The notes below the pieces were generated by a model, which saw only the letters and a list, made by a program, of their open reading frames with translations, made no database searches and was not told the DNA's origin. The translations under genes and the position numbers were made by a program. From Candidatus Peribacteria bacterium (GTDB lineage Bacteria; Patescibacteriota; Gracilibacteria; Peribacterales; Peribacteraceae): a stretch of DNA of 35,258 nt. Location: assembly GCA_023245765.1 (NCBI GenBank), contig JAHFJP010000011.1:1763-37020 (forward strand), written 5' to 3'. Shown piece after piece: positions 5,007 through 35,101 of this stretch (within the stretch, counting starts at the first letter, position 1; each line of letters opens with the position of its first letter).

Positions 5007-5083
5007 TGGTCGGGACGAAAGGACTTGAACCTTCGACCTCGCGGTCCCGAACCGCGCGCTCTAGCCAACTGAGCTACGTCCCG
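5007..5083 (-). tRNA. tRNA-Pro(CGG)
   Basis: The minus strand folds as a full cloverleaf: acceptor CGGGACG/CGTCCCG, D-arm GCTC..GAGC, anticodon stem CGCGG/CCGCG with loop TTCGGGA (anticodon CGG, reads CCG, G37 as usual in tRNA-Pro), and T-arm GAAGG-TTCAAGT-CCTTT. Discriminator A and the CCA end are encoded (5007-5010). A promoter-like TTGGCG-17-TATGTT ends 8 nt before the mature 5' end. Confidence 0.97.
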
Positions 5084-8878: not shown

Positions 8879-8965
8879 GCCGATGTGGCGGAATTGGTAG
8901 ACGCGCACGCTTCAGGAGCGTGTATCCGCAAGGATGTGGAGGTTCGAGTCCTCTCATCGGCACCA
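8879..8965 (+). tRNA. tRNA-Leu(CAG)
   Basis: Acceptor GCCGATG/CATCGGC, anticodon stem CACGC/GCGTG with loop TTCAGGA (anticodon CAG), a long class II variable arm (TATCCGCAAGGATG region) and T-loop GGTTCGAGTCC. Discriminator A and CCA are encoded at 8962-8965. Confidence 0.97.
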
Positions 8966-26014: not shown

Positions 26015-26042
26015 CCTCCCCCTCCGGGGGAGGGGTGTTTTG
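26015..26042 (+). terminator. purFD terminator
   Basis: CCTCCCCC (26015-26022), loop TCC, GGGGGAGG (26026-26033), then GGTGTTTTG. A strong GC stem with a short T-run, 34 nt after the purD stop. Confidence 0.75.
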
Positions 26043-26058
26043 TATGTTGTTTTTGTTT

Positions 26059-26064
26059 TACAAT
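26059..26064 (+). promoter_or_regulatory. -10 element of the BT1-type transporter gene
   Basis: TACAAT ending 8 nt before ATG 26073. The upstream T-rich stretch offers only weak -35 matches. Confidence 0.4.
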
Positions 26065-26072
26065 TGCTCCCA

Positions 26073-27398
26073 ATGCGCCTCGACCTGACCAGAATTCTGA
26101 TCCCGTTTGTCTACTTCATTGCTGGAGCGACGTCACTCGCCGGTGTCGCAACGACGTTCTACTTTAAAGATGATCTGCACCTGAGCATTCAGCAGGTCCA
26201 GTTCCTCGGATCCATCGCGATTATCCCGTGGAGCGTCAAACCGATCTATGGTCTGGTCTCCGATGTCCGCCCTGTCTTCGGATTGCGACGGAAACCGTAC
26301 CTGTTCCTCGCCGGACTCCTCGGTTCAGCGGGCTACTTTTCGCAAGCGACATGGGTGAGTGGATTCTGGGGCGCGGCCTTTGCGGCGATTACATCGGCGC
26401 TGGGATTCGCACTGGCGGACGTGATCGTCGATGGCATCGTCGCGGAGAAGAGCAAGACGCAGAAAGAGGCGGGAAGACTCCAGAGCATCTGCCGCGGCGC
26501 GCTCCTCGCCGGAGCAATTGCGGTCTCGTACGCGTCGGGAATCCTCGTGGAAGCGATCGGTGCACGGAACGTGTTCTTCATCACCGGTACTCTGCCGCTT
26601 GTGACCGTCATCTTCTCCCTCCTGGTTCTTGAAGGACCACTGCCCGAATCGGACTTTTCGATCCGGAAAGTCTGGAAGCAATTCAAGGGCGCCCTGAGCC
26701 CCGGACTCCTCTGGAGCGCCGCATTCCTGTTCGTGTGGCGTGCGACACCGACCTCCGGCGGCGCGTTCAATTACTTCCTGATCGATGAACTGCATTTCAC
26801 GCCCGAATTCTTCGGCCGCCTGGCGTTCATCAGTCATGTAACCGGCATCATCGGCGTCGTGGTCTTCCGCAAACTGCTCCTGAACGTGCCGCTGAAAAAA
26901 CTCTTCTTCTGGCTGATGGTTGCGAGCGTCGTTCTGTCGCTGCCTTCCATCGGACTGCTCTACAAATGGTATGACCTCATCGGTGTGAGCCCCCAGTTCT
27001 TCGCGATGGCCGATACGCTCATCGGCGGCATGCTCTTTGAGCTCGCCTTCCTGCCGCTCCTCGTGCTGGTGGCCCGCGTGTGCCCCAAAGGCATCGAAGC
27101 GACGATGTTCGCCGTTCTCGCGAGTTTGATGAACATCGGTCTCAGCGTCAGTGACCTTGGTGGCGCGGCTTTGACGACATACTTCGGTGTCCACTCCGCG
27201 ACGGAAACTCTTGCCGCAGATTATTCGAAGCTCCACATCGTCATGTGGATCGCGATCCTCTCGTCCTTCCTCCCATTGCCGCTATTGCCCTTCCTGCCCG
27301 AAACGCGGACGACGGACGATTTGGGAACGCAGGCGGCTCCGTCGATCATGACGCCGATGCTCACACCGATGGAAACAACAAAGGAGGAGATTGCTTGA
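26073..27398 (+). CDS. BT1/FBT-type folate-biopterin transporter (MFS)
   Basis: A 441-aa protein with 12 predicted membrane helices. The N-terminal part 'LSIQQVQFLGSIAIIPWSVK' and 'PIYGLVSDVRPVFGLRRKPY' matches the BT1/FBT signature (P-W-x-x-K-P-x-Y-G-x-x-S-D ... RR-x-Y). 'ALADVIVDGIVAEKSK' is also typical, with the D-x-x-x-D around helix 4. Known members move folates or pterins by proton symport in protists, plants and cyanobacteria. ATG 26073 is chosen because of the -10 element 8 nt upstream. It ends in TGA overlapping the next ATG. Closeness to folD and purF-purD supports a role in folate uptake, but the substrate is inferred. Confidence 0.85.
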   Translation: MRLDLTRILIPFVYFIAGATSLAGVATTFYFKDDLHLSIQQVQFLGSIAIIPWSVKPIYGLVSDVRPVFGLRRKPYLFLAGLLGSAGYFSQATWVSGFWGAAFAAITSALGFALADVIVDGIVAEKSKTQKEAGRLQSICRGALLAGAIAVSYASGILVEAIGARNVFFITGTLPLVTVIFSLLVLEGPLPESDFSIRKVWKQFKGALSPGLLWSAAFLFVWRATPTSGGAFNYFLIDELHFTPEFFGRLAFISHVTGIIGVVVFRKLLLNVPLKKLFFWLMVASVVLSLPSIGLLYKWYDLIGVSPQFFAMADTLIGGMLFELAFLPLLVLVARVCPKGIEATMFAVLASLMNIGLSVSDLGGAALTTYFGVHSATETLAADYSKLHIVMWIAILSSFLPLPLLPFLPETRTTDDLGTQAAPSIMTPMLTPMETTKEEIA

Positions 27399-30420: not shown

Positions 30421-31515
30421 ATGCGTATTCTTGTCGCTCTCTCCGGCGGAATCGATTCGAGCACTGTTGCTCATCTTTTGGCTCAACAGGGCCATGAACT
30501 GATCGGCGTACGGTTTGGTCTGTGGAGCGATCCGCTGGCCCCGGCTCTCGCGGAAATCCTGCCAAGCAAATGCTGCAATGCGCAGTCCGCTGCACGAACG
30601 CAGCACGTCGCGAAGCAGTTGAAGATCCCCCTCCACGTGATCGACCTTAGTGAGGAATTCAAACGGCACGTGGTCGATCCGTTCCTGGAAGGATACAGGC
30701 AGGGACTTTCACCAAACCCGTGCATCGGCTGCAACCGGACGATCAAGTTCGGGAAACTTCTCGAGTTGATGAAGGAATTTGGGTGCGAAAAGCTCGCCAC
30801 CGGCCACTACGCGCGCGTCGCACGGGAGAGACTTCCGGATGGCAGCGAGCGTCATCTGCTCCTCGAGGCAGTGGATCACATGAAGGATCAGAGCTACTAC
30901 CTGTACGGACTGACGCAGGAGCAATTGAGTAGCGTGATCTTCCCACTCGGAGCGATGCTGAAGAGCGAGGTATTTTCATTAGGTCGCGCCTTCGGCGTGC
31001 CGTTCGACGAGCAGTATCGTGAGAGTCAGGATCTGTGTTTTTTCCCCGAGAAGACGCCGCAGGAATTTTTGAAGCGGCACCTCCGCGATGATCTCCAGCC
31101 CGGCGAGATCGTCAGGCGTGACGGCACGATCGTCGGTAGTCACGATGGCCTGCCTCTCTACACGATCGGTCAGCGGCGCGGACTGAAGATCGGCGGTTTA
31201 AAAATTCCTTTGGAAGTCGTCTCGAAGGATCCCGCGCGCAATCAATTGATTGTCAACGAACAGGGACGTGAGCGCACATCATCTGTTCAACTCAAAGAGC
31301 TACGATGGATTTCATGGAAACCGGAGGAAGATTGCCCGGCACCATTTGACTGCCGGACACGCTCGTTGAGTGACCGGTTGCATGGGTCGATCCGCTTCGC
31401 GAATGATCACGGGATTTTCGATTTTGACCGGCCACAACCACCCCAGTCTCCGGGGCAGTCGTTGGTGCTGTACAGGGGGGAAGAAGTGGTAGGTGGGGGG
31501 GTGATCTGCCACTGA
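30421..31515 (+). CDS. mnmA: tRNA-specific 2-thiouridylase MnmA
   Basis: A 364-aa enzyme that puts sulfur on U34 of tRNA-Lys, -Glu and -Gln. The PP-loop is LVALSGGIDSST near the N-terminus. The two catalytic Cys are in 'SPNPCIGCNRTIKF' and 'ESQDLCFFPE'. 'ATGHYARV', 'DQSYYLYGLTQEQL' and 'YTIGQRRGL' are the standard family blocks. The gene is full-length and ends in a G-rich stretch. It heads a short intergenic gap to the calpain-like gene. Start ATG 30421 is next to a -10 element and lacks a Shine-Dalgarno. Confidence 0.97.
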   Translation: MRILVALSGGIDSSTVAHLLAQQGHELIGVRFGLWSDPLAPALAEILPSKCCNAQSAARTQHVAKQLKIPLHVIDLSEEFKRHVVDPFLEGYRQGLSPNPCIGCNRTIKFGKLLELMKEFGCEKLATGHYARVARERLPDGSERHLLLEAVDHMKDQSYYLYGLTQEQLSSVIFPLGAMLKSEVFSLGRAFGVPFDEQYRESQDLCFFPEKTPQEFLKRHLRDDLQPGEIVRRDGTIVGSHDGLPLYTIGQRRGLKIGGLKIPLEVVSKDPARNQLIVNEQGRERTSSVQLKELRWISWKPEEDCPAPFDCRTRSLSDRLHGSIRFANDHGIFDFDRPQPPQSPGQSLVLYRGEEVVGGGVICH

Positions 31516-31520
31516 AAACG

Positions 31521-31529
31521 TGGTATAAT
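31521..31529 (+). promoter_or_regulatory. Extended -10 promoter of the calpain-like gene
   Basis: TGGTATAAT: consensus -10 with TGn extension, ending 25 nt before ATG 31555. No good -35; no Shine-Dalgarno in the ~18-nt leader. Confidence 0.65.
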
Positions 31530-31554: not shown

Positions 31555-33558
31555 ATGGATCCACAATTGAACGGAGGTGAACAGCCACTGTTGAAACGGG
31601 CACTCAGCAATAATGACGTGAACCCGGCATCTGGCGAACGGCAGGTACCCCATCCGGAGACGACCAACAAGATGGCTGTTGTGAGAGCTGACCAGACGTT
31701 GGAAAAAACAACAAAAGAAATTCAACCCTTCACGCCCGTGAATGCACCGTCGGGAACTCCGGCGGAAATTCACAAGCGCGTTGCCGCATTGGGTGAAGAC
31801 CTTTTGCAGCGGATGGAACGCTCAACGGCTGCAGGTCAACGATATGCAAAAAATCCTGGTGCACGCGGTGAATATATTCAGGCTCTCCAGGAGGAACGCA
31901 AAGCGATCCTGGATGGCGATACTCAGCTGAATGGTCATCCATTGGCGAGTCTCATACGCGGCACGCACCGGAGCCGCGTGAACATGATTGAGCAGACGTT
32001 CAAGCAACTTGGATACACTCAACCGGAAGCAAAAACAGAAACGGAGAGGAAAGAAGATCCAGCACTCAAGCGGGCAGCCGACAGAGTGAAAGATGAATAT
32101 GACAAATATGAAGCGGCGAAAAGGCTCAAGCAACAAACGGAAGACAACCCTGATGAAAAAATCCTGAAACAGGAATTCCAGGATCTCCGCGACCGGATCG
32201 ACAGCAGAATCAAAGCGACAAATGCGAACATCCGGTACCTGGAGAGGGAGATCCAGAATCTTGGAAGGATCGGACGCTTCGTTGCGCGATTCACGGGAAC
32301 GCTCCGGGGCATGCGACTGTCACTGGAAGCGGATCAGAAATTACTCAACTCGTACGGAAAAATCCGATCGCAACTCGATACGGTTGCGCGGCTCAACCCG
32401 AAACAACGGCGGGAGGGATTCCAGAGACTCTGGAAGGATCTCGGCGCAACAAGGCCAGATTATCGTGATGCCAATGCGCAGCTCGCGAGGTCCGTCGATA
32501 CCATTGATACGTATGATTACTTCAACGTTATCACGACCCCACAACCGCGGGCGCCCTTTGTTGCCGGACAGGAGGTATACACACTGACCGAACGCTCGAC
32601 CGTTGAGCGCGGATGGCGCGTGATGTCCGTCTCGGAAAACCGCATCGCCGTGCGGCCGATCACCGGCGGTGCATTACGGGTTCTGACGCCGCAACAGGTC
32701 TGGCACGTCGGCGAAATCGATGGCGCACGGATGCTGCCACGCAACGTCCCGCGACACGTGCAGGCCGAAATGCAGAACCGCCGCAACACACTCATGCAGA
32801 GGTACGCACGTATCACAGAGGAGGAGTACCACCAGCTCTTCGACGGGCCCCTCCAGCAGCAGAATGTCGGCAACTGCTACCTGATCGCCGCATTCAACAG
32901 TCTCCGCCATTCACCCCACGCCGAAGTGATTTTGAGAACATCTGTGCAACGACAAGGAACAGGATTCATCGTGAAGATCCCCCTCGGCAATGCCGACGGC
33001 ACACCCATTGCCGTTTCGGCGCAAGACATGCAGGCGATGACTATTCCTACGGACTCTCATGGAAGAACGCAACTGCAGCCGGTGAACGCAGCGCCCGGAT
33101 GGGTGGCGCTCGAAGCGGCATTCATCATCAAACGGTTTGGCCGTCTGGACCGACGGGCGGCTGAAGGCGGATTGGGCGAAGCGGCGCTTTCTGCTCTGAT
33201 GGGTAATGCAGTACAGACTCTGAGAATTCGCAACAATTTCGCGACATTGAGCGAAGATGCACGATCAAGAGAGCAGGCAATCGCACTACTCAATTCGTTC
33301 TCACCCGAACGGCACATACTCACAGCATCTTCTCGTGTTTTCCAAGATGAACGGAGTAGTTTTAGGACAGGTCCGCACACGTTCCTCACAAAGCATGCTT
33401 ATTCCATCTTCCGAGTAGACCCAGGAAGCAGACAGATTATTCTTGCAAATCCTCATAATACAGCGATACATATACAGGTAACCTACGACGAATTTCTCAC
33501 TTCATTCAGAGGGATCGGTATCGCCACGGTGAATGATGCGCGAATTTTCCGGGTCTAA
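31555..33558 (+). CDS. Calpain-like (C2 family) cysteine peptidase with coiled-coil N-terminus
   Basis: A 667-aa protein with no signal peptide or membrane span. Residues ~1-60 are low-complexity; ~60-320 are charged helices and coiled coil ('KILKQEFQDLRDRIDSRIKA'). A small beta-rich part around 330-395 ('FVAGQEVYTLTERSTVERGW') precedes the catalytic domain. The active site is recognisable: 'QQQNVGNCYLIAAFNSL' with Cys441, 'TFLTKHAYSIFRV' with His614 and 'ILANPHNT' with Asn632, matching calpain's QxxxGxCxxxA, HAY and N-P motifs. Trp after the Cys is replaced by Tyr. Substrate and trigger are unknown; no EF-hand is seen. It lies 72 nt upstream of a sortase gene on the same strand, with a separate promoter between them. 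Confidence 0.82.
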   Translation: MDPQLNGGEQPLLKRALSNNDVNPASGERQVPHPETTNKMAVVRADQTLEKTTKEIQPFTPVNAPSGTPAEIHKRVAALGEDLLQRMERSTAAGQRYAKNPGARGEYIQALQEERKAILDGDTQLNGHPLASLIRGTHRSRVNMIEQTFKQLGYTQPEAKTETERKEDPALKRAADRVKDEYDKYEAAKRLKQQTEDNPDEKILKQEFQDLRDRIDSRIKATNANIRYLEREIQNLGRIGRFVARFTGTLRGMRLSLEADQKLLNSYGKIRSQLDTVARLNPKQRREGFQRLWKDLGATRPDYRDANAQLARSVDTIDTYDYFNVITTPQPRAPFVAGQEVYTLTERSTVERGWRVMSVSENRIAVRPITGGALRVLTPQQVWHVGEIDGARMLPRNVPRHVQAEMQNRRNTLMQRYARITEEEYHQLFDGPLQQQNVGNCYLIAAFNSLRHSPHAEVILRTSVQRQGTGFIVKIPLGNADGTPIAVSAQDMQAMTIPTDSHGRTQLQPVNAAPGWVALEAAFIIKRFGRLDRRAAEGGLGEAALSALMGNAVQTLRIRNNFATLSEDARSREQAIALLNSFSPERHILTASSRVFQDERSSFRTGPHTFLTKHAYSIFRVDPGSRQIILANPHNTAIHIQVTYDEFLTSFRGIGIATVNDARIFRV

Positions 33559-33613: not shown

Positions 33614-33622
33614 TGGTATACT
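33614..33622 (+). promoter_or_regulatory. Extended -10 promoter of the sortase gene
   Basis: TGGTATACT with the hexamer ending 8 nt before TTG 33631. A weak TTTCTG lies 17 nt upstream. It predicts a 0-2 nt leader ahead of a TTG start. Confidence 0.55.
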
Positions 33623-33630
33623 CTTAAGAT

Positions 33631-34905
33631 TTGTTGAACCCTCCTTTCGACCACCGGGCCAGCTACGACGACGACGGGAATATCATTCTCCCGTCCATGC
33701 ACAATGCGCACATGCGCGACGACGACGTTGACGTTGAACCGATGCAGGGATTCATCGCGGAAACGCGGAGTGACTCCGACGACATCGTCGAATGGATCAT
33801 CACGGAAGACGCGCCGGCCGATCTCCACCCCGTCGAAACAATCGCTGCGCCACGCTTTGTTCCCGGTGAACCAACGATCCCCTTCTCCCTTCACGTACGG
33901 GAGAGAATTGTGGGACTCCGAACGATGACACGCGGAGCAGTGCGCGAAGGTGCGCGGCAGTACAAGGTGAGCATCTCCTCTGGCATTCCACTCCTGCAGC
34001 AGATCACAGAAGACACACTGAAATTTCTGCGGATCGTCTGGGATTTCCTGGCACAGCCAGTATGGGTCCCCGGGCGTAAGCGGGAGATCAAACAGTACAG
34101 CCGGGGCACCCTCTTCCTCCTCGACATTGTCCGCTTCGGCGGAACCTTCACCGTAATCTTCCTCGCGCTCTTCGTCGCGCTCAACTACGACAGCTTCTGG
34201 CAGATCACGCGAAGCAAAATCACAATGGTCCTCAGTAGTCCCACAATCGAAGCCCCGGAGTCACAAATCGATAACGCCATGATCGAAACGCTGAAGCAGA
34301 CGTCTGCGGTGTCGCAAGACGGCCGCGAGCGCGGAGAACTGCTGAGTTTTCTGCCCAACGTCGGTCCTCCCGATAACCGCATTCTGATCCCAAAACTCAA
34401 GCTCAATGTACCGCTCGTGCAGCCGCCGCTTGAATCACTCCTACGCCAGGATTGGGCACAGGTGGAAGAGGACATCCAGACGGCACTCGCAGACGGTGTG
34501 GTGCACTACCCGGGAACCGCAAAGCCCGGCCAGGCGGGCAACTTCTTCGTGACCGGTCACAGCTCCTACTACCCGTGGGCACCGGGACACTACAAAACCG
34601 TCTTCGCGCGACTCCATGACCTCAACCCCGGCGACGAGTACTGGGTTTACTACAAAGGCGACCGTCATCGCTACATTGTGACCGAAAAGAAAGAAGTGAG
34701 CCCGGGTGACATCACCGTGCTGGATCAGCCCGAAGCAAAACGCATCTCGACATTGATGACCTGCACGCCCGTCGGAACCACCTTACGCCGCCTCGTCGTC
34801 ATCGCGCAGGAGGTCAATCCGCTCACGGGTGAGGTCCTCGCGGTCGGTCAGAGGGGGGAGAAGGGTGTGACGCCAAAGGTGAAGCTGGAGGCGTTGCCGA
34901 TTTAG
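33631..34905 (+). CDS. Sortase family transpeptidase with long N-terminal region
   Basis: A 424-aa protein. About residues 1-165 are cytoplasmic, acidic at first ('DDDGNIILPSMHN', 'MRDDDVDVEPM'). One membrane span follows (FGGTFTVIFLALFVALNY) and then an extracytoplasmic sortase domain. The catalytic His310 is in 'FFVTGHSSYYPW', Cys378 in 'STLMTCTPVGTTLRRLVV' and the Arg just after it (386/387). Sortases cut a C-terminal sorting signal and link the protein to a surface amine. The TTG start is chosen because it lies 8 nt after the -10 element; a downstream ATG (33697) is the alternative. No substrate with an LPxTG-like tail was found in this window. The stop codon begins a G-rich tract. Confidence 0.92.
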   Translation: MLNPPFDHRASYDDDGNIILPSMHNAHMRDDDVDVEPMQGFIAETRSDSDDIVEWIITEDAPADLHPVETIAAPRFVPGEPTIPFSLHVRERIVGLRTMTRGAVREGARQYKVSISSGIPLLQQITEDTLKFLRIVWDFLAQPVWVPGRKREIKQYSRGTLFLLDIVRFGGTFTVIFLALFVALNYDSFWQITRSKITMVLSSPTIEAPESQIDNAMIETLKQTSAVSQDGRERGELLSFLPNVGPPDNRILIPKLKLNVPLVQPPLESLLRQDWAQVEEDIQTALADGVVHYPGTAKPGQAGNFFVTGHSSYYPWAPGHYKTVFARLHDLNPGDEYWVYYKGDRHRYIVTEKKEVSPGDITVLDQPEAKRISTLMTCTPVGTTLRRLVVIAQEVNPLTGEVLAVGQRGEKGVTPKVKLEALPI

Positions 34906-35011: not shown

Positions 35012-35101
35012 GCCGCTGTGGTGAAATGGTAGACACGGGGGACTTAAAATCCCCTGACCTCTTATCGGGTCATGCTGGTTCGATTCCAGCCGGCGGCACC
35101 A
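35012..35101 (+). tRNA. tRNA-Leu(TAA)
   Basis: Acceptor GCCGCTG/CGGCGGC, anticodon stem GGGGA/TCCCC with loop CTTAAAA (anticodon TAA), a long variable arm (TGACCTCTTATCGGGTCA) and T-loop GGTTCGATTCC. Discriminator A and CCA are encoded. A TATACT at 34967-34972 is a possible -10 about 40 nt upstream. Confidence 0.97.

What the first reader, a model, noticed from the sequence alone, without database searches (positions are those of the whole stretch)
31555..33558. Calpain-like cysteine protease in a tiny-genome-type bacterium, beside a sortase
Cys441, His614 and Asn632 sit in calpain-like motifs (QNVGNCY, KHAYSI, ANPHNT) after a long coiled-coil region. No secretion signal is visible, so it may act inside the cell or leave by an unusual route. 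An episymbiotic lineage could use such a protease on host proteins or for regulated self-cleavage. The next gene is a sortase.
Basis: partly seen in the sequence, partly recalled or inferred. Interest (0 to 1): 0.65.

Follow-up and report, generated by a model that had tools for sequence, protein, structure and literature searches.

The report
Calpain-like protease in a Peregrinibacteria-group bacterium
This tiny-genome bacterium carries a gene for a relative of the animal protease calpain, slotted between two ordinary genes where its closest relatives have nothing; patchy relatives across its class, on differently built proteins, suggest an exchangeable accessory enzyme, with no functional tie to the neighbouring sortase.

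Summary
Observation confirmed. Window 31555-33558 (+) is a 667-aa ORF with Cys441, His614 and Asn632 in calpain motifs. Its last 272 residues pass the Pfam Peptidase_C2 cut-off (24.3 vs 23.8 bits). A profile of 16 relatives finds calpains as its 18 best PDB sequences (E 2.5e-6). The 20 best Foldseek matches of an AlphaFold2 model are calpain cores. The canonical Ca2+ sites are degenerate, as in many bacterial calpains.

The sortase link fails. mnmA and the sortase are adjacent, with no calpain, in all eight family members compared, three of them congeners; only here is the calpain gene, with its own promoter-like site, between them.

Relatives occur in 30 of 353 genomes of the class (Gracilibacteria-type, some with TGA recoded), triad intact (Asn to Asp in two). 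They sit on unlike carriers: the helical/SH3-like form here, calpain-FHA proteins, and 1,500-2,400-aa proteins, several preceded by a small helical gene. The SH3-like module also precedes a metallophosphatase and an HExxH protease-like domain.

Best reading: a bacterial calpain without the Ca2+ sites, used as an exchangeable catalytic module of an accessory effector; calpain membership about 0.95, effector role about 0.5. I found no report of calpains in this class in the open-access library searched.

The parts
30421..31515 (+). mnmA (tRNA 2-thiouridine synthase), upstream neighbour; adjacent to the sortase without calpain in relatives
   Evidence: NCBIfam PRK00143 E 1.1e-102; synteny
31521..31529 (+). 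extended -10 promoter-like site TGGTATAAT between mnmA and the calpain gene
   Evidence: read from sequence; the sigma-70 consensus scan found no full two-hexamer site, so unproven
31555..33558 (+). calpain-like cysteine protease gene, 667 aa
31555..31749 (+). residues 1-65, predicted disordered
   Evidence: pLDDT below 50
31759..32499 (+). residues 69-315, helical / coiled-coil-like region; part shared with the G221 homologue
   Evidence: model helices; blastp 217-678 vs 172-681 of the stop-to-stop frames, 29% identity
32566..32730 (+). residues ~338-392, small SH3-like (integrase-C-term/Tudor-like) beta domain, motif TVERGW
   Evidence: Foldseek hits to RSV integrase CTD and TDRD3 Tudor; same domain in other proteins of the class
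32740..33555 (+). residues 396-667, calpain (Peptidase_C2) catalytic domain at the extreme C terminus
32875..32877 (+). codon of catalytic Cys441
   Evidence: 20 of 20 relatives
33394..33396 (+). codon of catalytic His614
   Evidence: 20 of 20
33448..33450 (+). codon of catalytic Asn632
   Evidence: N in 18, D in 2
33614..33622 (+). extended -10 promoter-like site TGGTATACT of the sortase gene, in a stretch also found upstream of the sortase in relatives
   Evidence: read from sequence, and blastn match to G001
33631..34905 (+). sortase-domain membrane protein, downstream neighbour; not functionally linked by synteny
   Evidence: PF04203 E 3.7e-24; adjacency to mnmA in relatives

Best explanation
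The gene encodes a true member of the calpain (C2) peptidase family that most likely works without the canonical calpain Ca2+ switch. Shown by sequence and model: a papain/calpain-fold C-terminal domain with Gln435 (oxyanion), Cys441, His614 and Asn632, preceded by an SH3-like domain and a long helical N-terminal part. Shown by comparison: it is an accessory gene, absent from congeners and placed between an ancestral mnmA-sortase pair, and its catalytic domain is used across the class on very different carriers. Inferred: it is an effector-type protease. The helical and SH3-like parts carry or dock it, and the C-terminal calpain domain cuts a specific protein, most likely after delivery to, or contact with, another cell by a Sec-independent route, and less likely inside the producing cell. 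The first two steps are secure; the effector role is a reasoned guess at about one in two, and substrate and delivery route are unknown.
For: Family: Pfam C2 above cut-off for the domain and matched by 15 of 16 relatives; profile vs PDB, 18 best hits all calpains, E down to 2.5e-6; AF2 model (pLDDT 78, pTM 0.69, four sequences) whose 20 best Foldseek hits are calpain cores (E 4.2e-6 to 3.7e-4). Active enzyme expected: triad kept in relatives. Accessory status: absent from 3 congeners and nearly all of family f1; mnmA-sortase directly adjacent in 8 of 8 family genomes compared; lowest GC3 of 12 window genes (0.573 vs 0.616-0.806); nearest homologue of the same family at another locus and only 29% identical over 521 aa, whereas mnmA is 56-58% identical. 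Module shuffling: calpain domain on unlike N-termini, with FHA, or in 1,500-2,400-aa proteins; the SH3-like module also precedes a metallophosphatase (PF00149, E 4e-11) and an HExxH protease-like domain. Precedent: calpain domains fused to WXG100 are regarded as probable T7SS toxins (Rawlings 2015, PMC4631099, with Aravind's review).
Against: No secretion signal, trafficking domain or immunity gene is seen at the window locus. Small ORFs directly downstream of some relatives (L004, L038, L045) are mostly not homologous to each other, and the L004/L038 pair has no credible copy in this genome. The FHA-linked relatives fit intracellular phospho-signalling as well as an effector role. In a 19-row tree the window groups with the other family-f1 member (94/92), which also fits vertical inheritance with many losses. 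Activity, Ca2+ independence and location were not measured.
Confidence: 0.5

Rival explanations
1. Regulated intracellular protease: the helical and SH3-like parts sense or hold a partner, and the calpain domain makes limited cuts in the cell's own proteins (stress response, cell-cycle or surface-protein maturation), like eukaryotic calpains but switched by something other than Ca2+.
For: No signal peptide; relatives carry FHA phosphopeptide-binding domains (PF00498, E 1e-14 to 2e-6), and the SH3-like module also sits before a metallophosphatase, all plausible cytosolic signalling parts.
Against: Very patchy presence (30 of 353 genomes), absence from congeners and an extra-gene position argue against a core cellular role.
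Confidence: 0.3
2. Suicide or abortive-infection type defence protease: triggered by phage, the calpain domain destroys essential self proteins.
For: Patchy, accessory gene with a sensor-like helical N-terminus; proteases are common defence effectors (general knowledge).
Against: No PADLOC model hits the protease domain; the two weak hits (LmuB, JetC, E 3e-4 to 2e-3) lie in the helical part (residues 69-311) and are what long helices give. No defence neighbours: mnmA, prfA, sortase, tRNA. No relatives in viral contigs.
Confidence: 0.1
3. Functional unit with the sortase: the protease processes sortase substrates or the sortase anchors the protease to the surface.
For: Adjacent, same strand, 72-bp gap.
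Against: mnmA and sortase are adjacent without calpain in 8 of 8 relatives; the sortase has its own conserved promoter-like region; G221 has both genes on different contigs. The protease ends ...DARIFRV with no C-terminal sorting signal or TM segment.
Confidence: 0.03
4. Catalytically dead calpain relative acting as a binding scaffold.
For: A minority of calpain homologues are non-peptidases (Rawlings 2015).
Against: Gln, Cys, His, Asn all present here and conserved across relatives.
Confidence: 0.04

Closest known systems
Bacterial calpains (Peptidase_C2; Rawlings 2015, PMC4631099; cyanobacterial set, PMC9380684)
   Same: Calpain-fold domain, usually C-terminal; Cys/His/Asn; no signal peptide in most; lacking Ca2+ sites in many; rare and patchy even within genera.
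   Different: Found in a candidate-phylum class not among the phyla listed in 2015; SH3-like plus helical N-terminus here; calpain-FHA and giant-protein architectures in relatives, not among the domain fusions listed by Rawlings.
Eukaryotic calpains (CAPN1/2/3/5 protease cores)
   Same: Fold, oxyanion Gln, triad order, HAYS and NP motifs; best Foldseek and PDB sequence matches.
   Different: About 12-16% identity in the structural alignments; Ca2+ site residues not kept; no CIII or EF-hand domains.
Papain-fold polymorphic toxins (Tox-PL families, PMC3482391) and WXG100-calpain proteins
   Same: C-terminal papain-like domain as probable catalytic end of modular, patchily distributed proteins.
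   Different: No recognised trafficking domain or immunity gene at the window locus; calpain itself is not named in that survey (0 occurrences in the text held).
Interbacterial cysteine protease toxin cutting GyrB/ParE (PMC12136450)
   Same: Precedent for a cysteine protease as antibacterial effector (abstract).
   Different: Not compared by sequence here; [quoted passage not shown]

Membership tests
Calpain family peptidase C2 | Cys-His-Asn triad in this order with a Gln before the Cys | tested here: met
   Q435, C441, H614, N632; conserved in 20/20, 20/20, 20/20 and 18 N + 2 D of 20 relatives
Calpain family peptidase C2 | Score above the Pfam PF00648 cut-off (23.8 bits) | tested here: met
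   24.3 bits for the domain; 21.1 for the full length, just below
Calpain family peptidase C2 | Calpain protease-core fold | tested here: met
   20 best Foldseek hits all calpains, TM 0.35-0.47 with an extra N-terminal domain in the model
Calpain family peptidase C2 | Endopeptidase activity | not testable with these tools
   needs purified protein
Ca2+-dependent (classical) calpain | Ca2+ site residues in the core (m-calpain D96, E175, E292, D299) | tested here: not met
   equivalents by distance from conserved residues are P432, A513, I638 and D645; only the last agrees, and the loop lengths there differ
Ca2+-dependent (classical) calpain | CIII and/or EF-hand domains | tested here: not met
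   no Pfam match; calpain domain ends the protein
Polymorphic toxin | N-terminal trafficking domain or secretion signal | tested here: not met
   none by Pfam or hydropathy
Polymorphic toxin | Interchangeable C-terminal catalytic domains on a shared carrier | tested here: inconclusive
   SH3-like module precedes calpain, metallophosphatase and HExxH domains in five genomes, but the rest of the carriers differ
Polymorphic toxin | Immunity gene next to the toxin | tested here: not met
   72 bp then sortase; no credible copy of the small downstream ORFs of the nearest relatives
Sortase-linked surface system | Conserved protease-sortase neighbourhood | tested here: not met
   no calpain between mnmA and sortase in 8 relatives

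The most novel reading that the evidence does not exclude
The class holds an undescribed modular effector system: giant proteins preceded by a small helical (chaperone-like) gene, with exchangeable C-terminal enzymes (calpain, metallophosphatase, HExxH protease), used by these host-dependent bacteria on partner cells; the window gene is a stand-alone offshoot of its calpain branch.
Probability: 0.2. Interest if true: 0.8.

Novelty: new variant of a known kind. Interest (0 to 1): 0.42.

Why it matters
Bacterial calpains are rare, their functions are unknown, and their spread bears on where eukaryotic calpains came from. A class of reduced, presumably host-dependent bacteria in which about one genome in twelve keeps a calpain gene, on several kinds of carrier and despite genomes near 1-1.5 Mb, gives a focused set in which calpain function without the Ca2+ switch could be tested, and points to possible protein effectors in lineages with few known weapons.

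Tried and rejected
Sortase linkage: rejected by synteny. Phage or plasmid origin: no relatives in viral contigs or, at useful E-values, in plasmids. Known defence system: only weak coiled-coil hits in PADLOC. Flanking repeats of 9 bases or more around the extra segment, as a sign of a transposition event: none. A common inhibitor or immunity gene: small ORFs downstream of relatives are mostly unrelated, and the nearest pair has no credible copy in this genome. A single phmmer search of the full protein against PDB gave nothing useful, so a profile was needed. The class-wide count for the small helical gene profile (314 of 353 genomes) is not trusted as a system count: most hits are weak, and helical composition may help them.

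Full report
Setting. The window lies on contig 4 of a 1.45-Mb, 71-contig genome, 95% complete. A homologue of the query in a named collection comes from a Candidatus Peregrinibacteria MAG (NORP126; L035), whose contig length (50,576) equals that of class member G056. The class also holds families whose calpain genes are open only with TGA read as an amino acid, so it is the Gracilibacteria-type class (the exact name is inference).

Observation. The ORF, its coordinates and the three motifs are as stated. Cys441 is the only cysteine of the protein. There is no hydrophobic N-terminal segment. A shallow full-length model gives residues 1-65 disordered, 69-151 helical with fair confidence, 169-315 helical with low confidence, 340-390 a small beta domain and 400-660 the protease.

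Is it a calpain? The full protein scores 21.1 bits against Pfam Peptidase_C2 (cut-off 23.8), the last 272 residues alone 24.3 bits, and 15 of 16 relatives match (best 4.2e-11). A profile of the 16 relatives against all PDB sequences returns calpains for its 18 best hits (E 2.5e-6 for calpain-3). An AlphaFold2 model of residues 319-667 from four sequences (pLDDT 78, pTM 0.69) matches calpain protease cores in its 20 best Foldseek hits (CAPN5 first, E 4.2e-6). TM-scores are modest (0.35-0.47), in part because the model carries the extra N-terminal domain. In the alignment of 21 relatives Gln435, Cys441 and His614 never vary where present and Asn632 is Asn or, twice, Asp, a change that can leave calpains active (Rawlings 2015). 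By distance from conserved residues, the Ca2+-site positions named in that paper (D96, E175, E292, D299 of m-calpain) read P432, A513, I638 and D645 here: the sites are not kept, as for many bacterial homologues. Ca2+ independence of the activity is inference.

The small domain. Residues about 338-392 hit the SH3-like C-terminal domain of RSV integrase and the Tudor domain of TDRD3 by Foldseek. A profile of it (A7) finds only six of 353 genomes: before calpain in the window genome, G056 and G242, twice in tandem before a metallophosphatase (PF00149, E 4.2e-11) in G279, twice before a domain with an HExxH motif (YLHERTHS) in G251, plus one weak match.

Neighbourhood. mnmA and the sortase gene are direct neighbours in three congeners (gaps of about 141, 85 and 47 bp) and in G221, G004, G005, G007 and G010 of the family; none has anything homologous to calpain between them. 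Only the window genome has the 2-kb calpain gene there. A TGGTATAAT site lies before it and the sortase keeps its own TGGTATACT region, which aligns with G001; both are sequence readings, and the consensus scan found no full promoter. The simplest account is gain at this site. Loss in all eight others is possible, and one MAG cannot exclude a local assembly error, although both flanks are in conserved order on one contig. No flanking repeats were found. GC3 is the lowest of 12 window genes (0.573), a mild sign of a different history.

Distribution. A two-sequence profile of the C-terminal 331 aa finds 30 of 353 genomes of the class (19 of 236 good ones). In an even draw of 380 genomes of the phylum only six match, four of them in this class. 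No congener has it. The tree of 19 domains splits into a group that includes the window (eight rows, 98/95) and a group of calpain-FHA, giant and other proteins (11 rows); the window pairs with G221 of the same family (94/92), a gene at a different place. Three genomes hold two calpain genes each (G242, G269, G289).

Architectures of relatives. Group 1 has the calpain domain at or near the C-terminus (448-1,513 aa). In others it is followed by 160-240 aa, which in L045, L048 and (by alignment) L050 include FHA-type sequence; L042 has FHA before the calpain domain. Proteins of 1,481-2,415 aa (L039, L042, L045, L047, L053) have a hydrophobic middle segment. Several of the large ones (L004, L039, L042, L047, L053) are preceded, overlapping or within about 10 bases, by a small helical gene (101-113 aa); leave-one-out profiles recover most members (E 1e-8 to 3e-3), miss two (L039, L047), and find a further copy before the giant phosphatase gene in L055. 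About 25 of the best 30 loci found with this profile have a long ORF directly downstream (most of the training loci are among them). The window gene has no such partner. The window genome itself has three weak matches elsewhere, E 1.7e-6 to 2e-3.

Function. The secure part is a conserved, probably active, C2-family peptidase on an accessory gene. The effector reading rests on patchiness, modular carriers, a C-terminal catalytic domain, and the published view that WXG100-fused calpains are likely secreted toxins. Against it stand the lack of a trafficking domain, signal or immunity gene at this locus, and the FHA and phosphatase links that suit intracellular signalling. I put effector at about 0.5, intracellular regulator at 0.3, defence at 0.1, and the rest small.

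Known or new. Bacterial calpains are known; none of the phyla listed in 2015 is this one, and searches of the open-access library for calpain with Patescibacteria, Gracilibacteria or candidate phyla radiation gave no paper on such calpains. The library lacks most subscription papers and preprints, so absence there is weak evidence. I file it as a new variant of a known kind.

Noticed in passing
L004 10966-11295, L039 11414-11788, L042 2019-2384, L047 3209-3535, L053 3852-4241, L046 7793-8104, L050 2638-2958, L055 13118-13447: Small helical proteins (about 101-113 aa) encoded directly before giant proteins, mostly homologous to each other by leave-one-out profile; profile matches in 314 of 353 class genomes, many weak. 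Possible chaperone-effector type gene pair.
   Followed up: partly
L055 6410-13114 and L054 3-2132: Tandem SH3-like modules before a metallophosphatase (2,235-aa protein) and before an HExxH-motif domain: same adapter, different enzymes.
   Followed up: partly
L045 2099-2494 and 7197-7628: Two paralogous small genes, each directly downstream of one of two calpain genes (the larger with a clear FHA domain); candidate inhibitors.
   Followed up: no
L038 5345-5593 and L004 8145-8429: Small ORFs directly downstream of the calpain genes of G221 and G056, near relatives of the window's; 27% identical, possible cognate inhibitors, no credible copy in the window genome.
   Followed up: partly
L038 1035-4349: 1,105-aa protein with an N-terminal VEPLEDRCLLS motif, resembling (from memory) a planctomycete-type surface signal, near the calpain gene of G221.
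   Followed up: no
window 35012-35101: tRNA-Leu (TAA), in a stretch conserved at 77-96% in several relatives near the sortase; also tRNA-Leu (CAG) 8879-8965 and tRNA-Pro (CGG) 5007-5083 on the minus strand.
   Followed up: yes
window 26040-27398: BT1-family folate/biopterin-type transporter (PF03092, E 9e-88), a family best known (from memory) from protists and plastids.
   Followed up: no
L037 7575-9455: Calpain-type protein readable only with TGA as a residue (626 aa, 17 TGA codons) in an 'uncultured bacterium' MAG: the family spans recoded lineages.
   Followed up: partly
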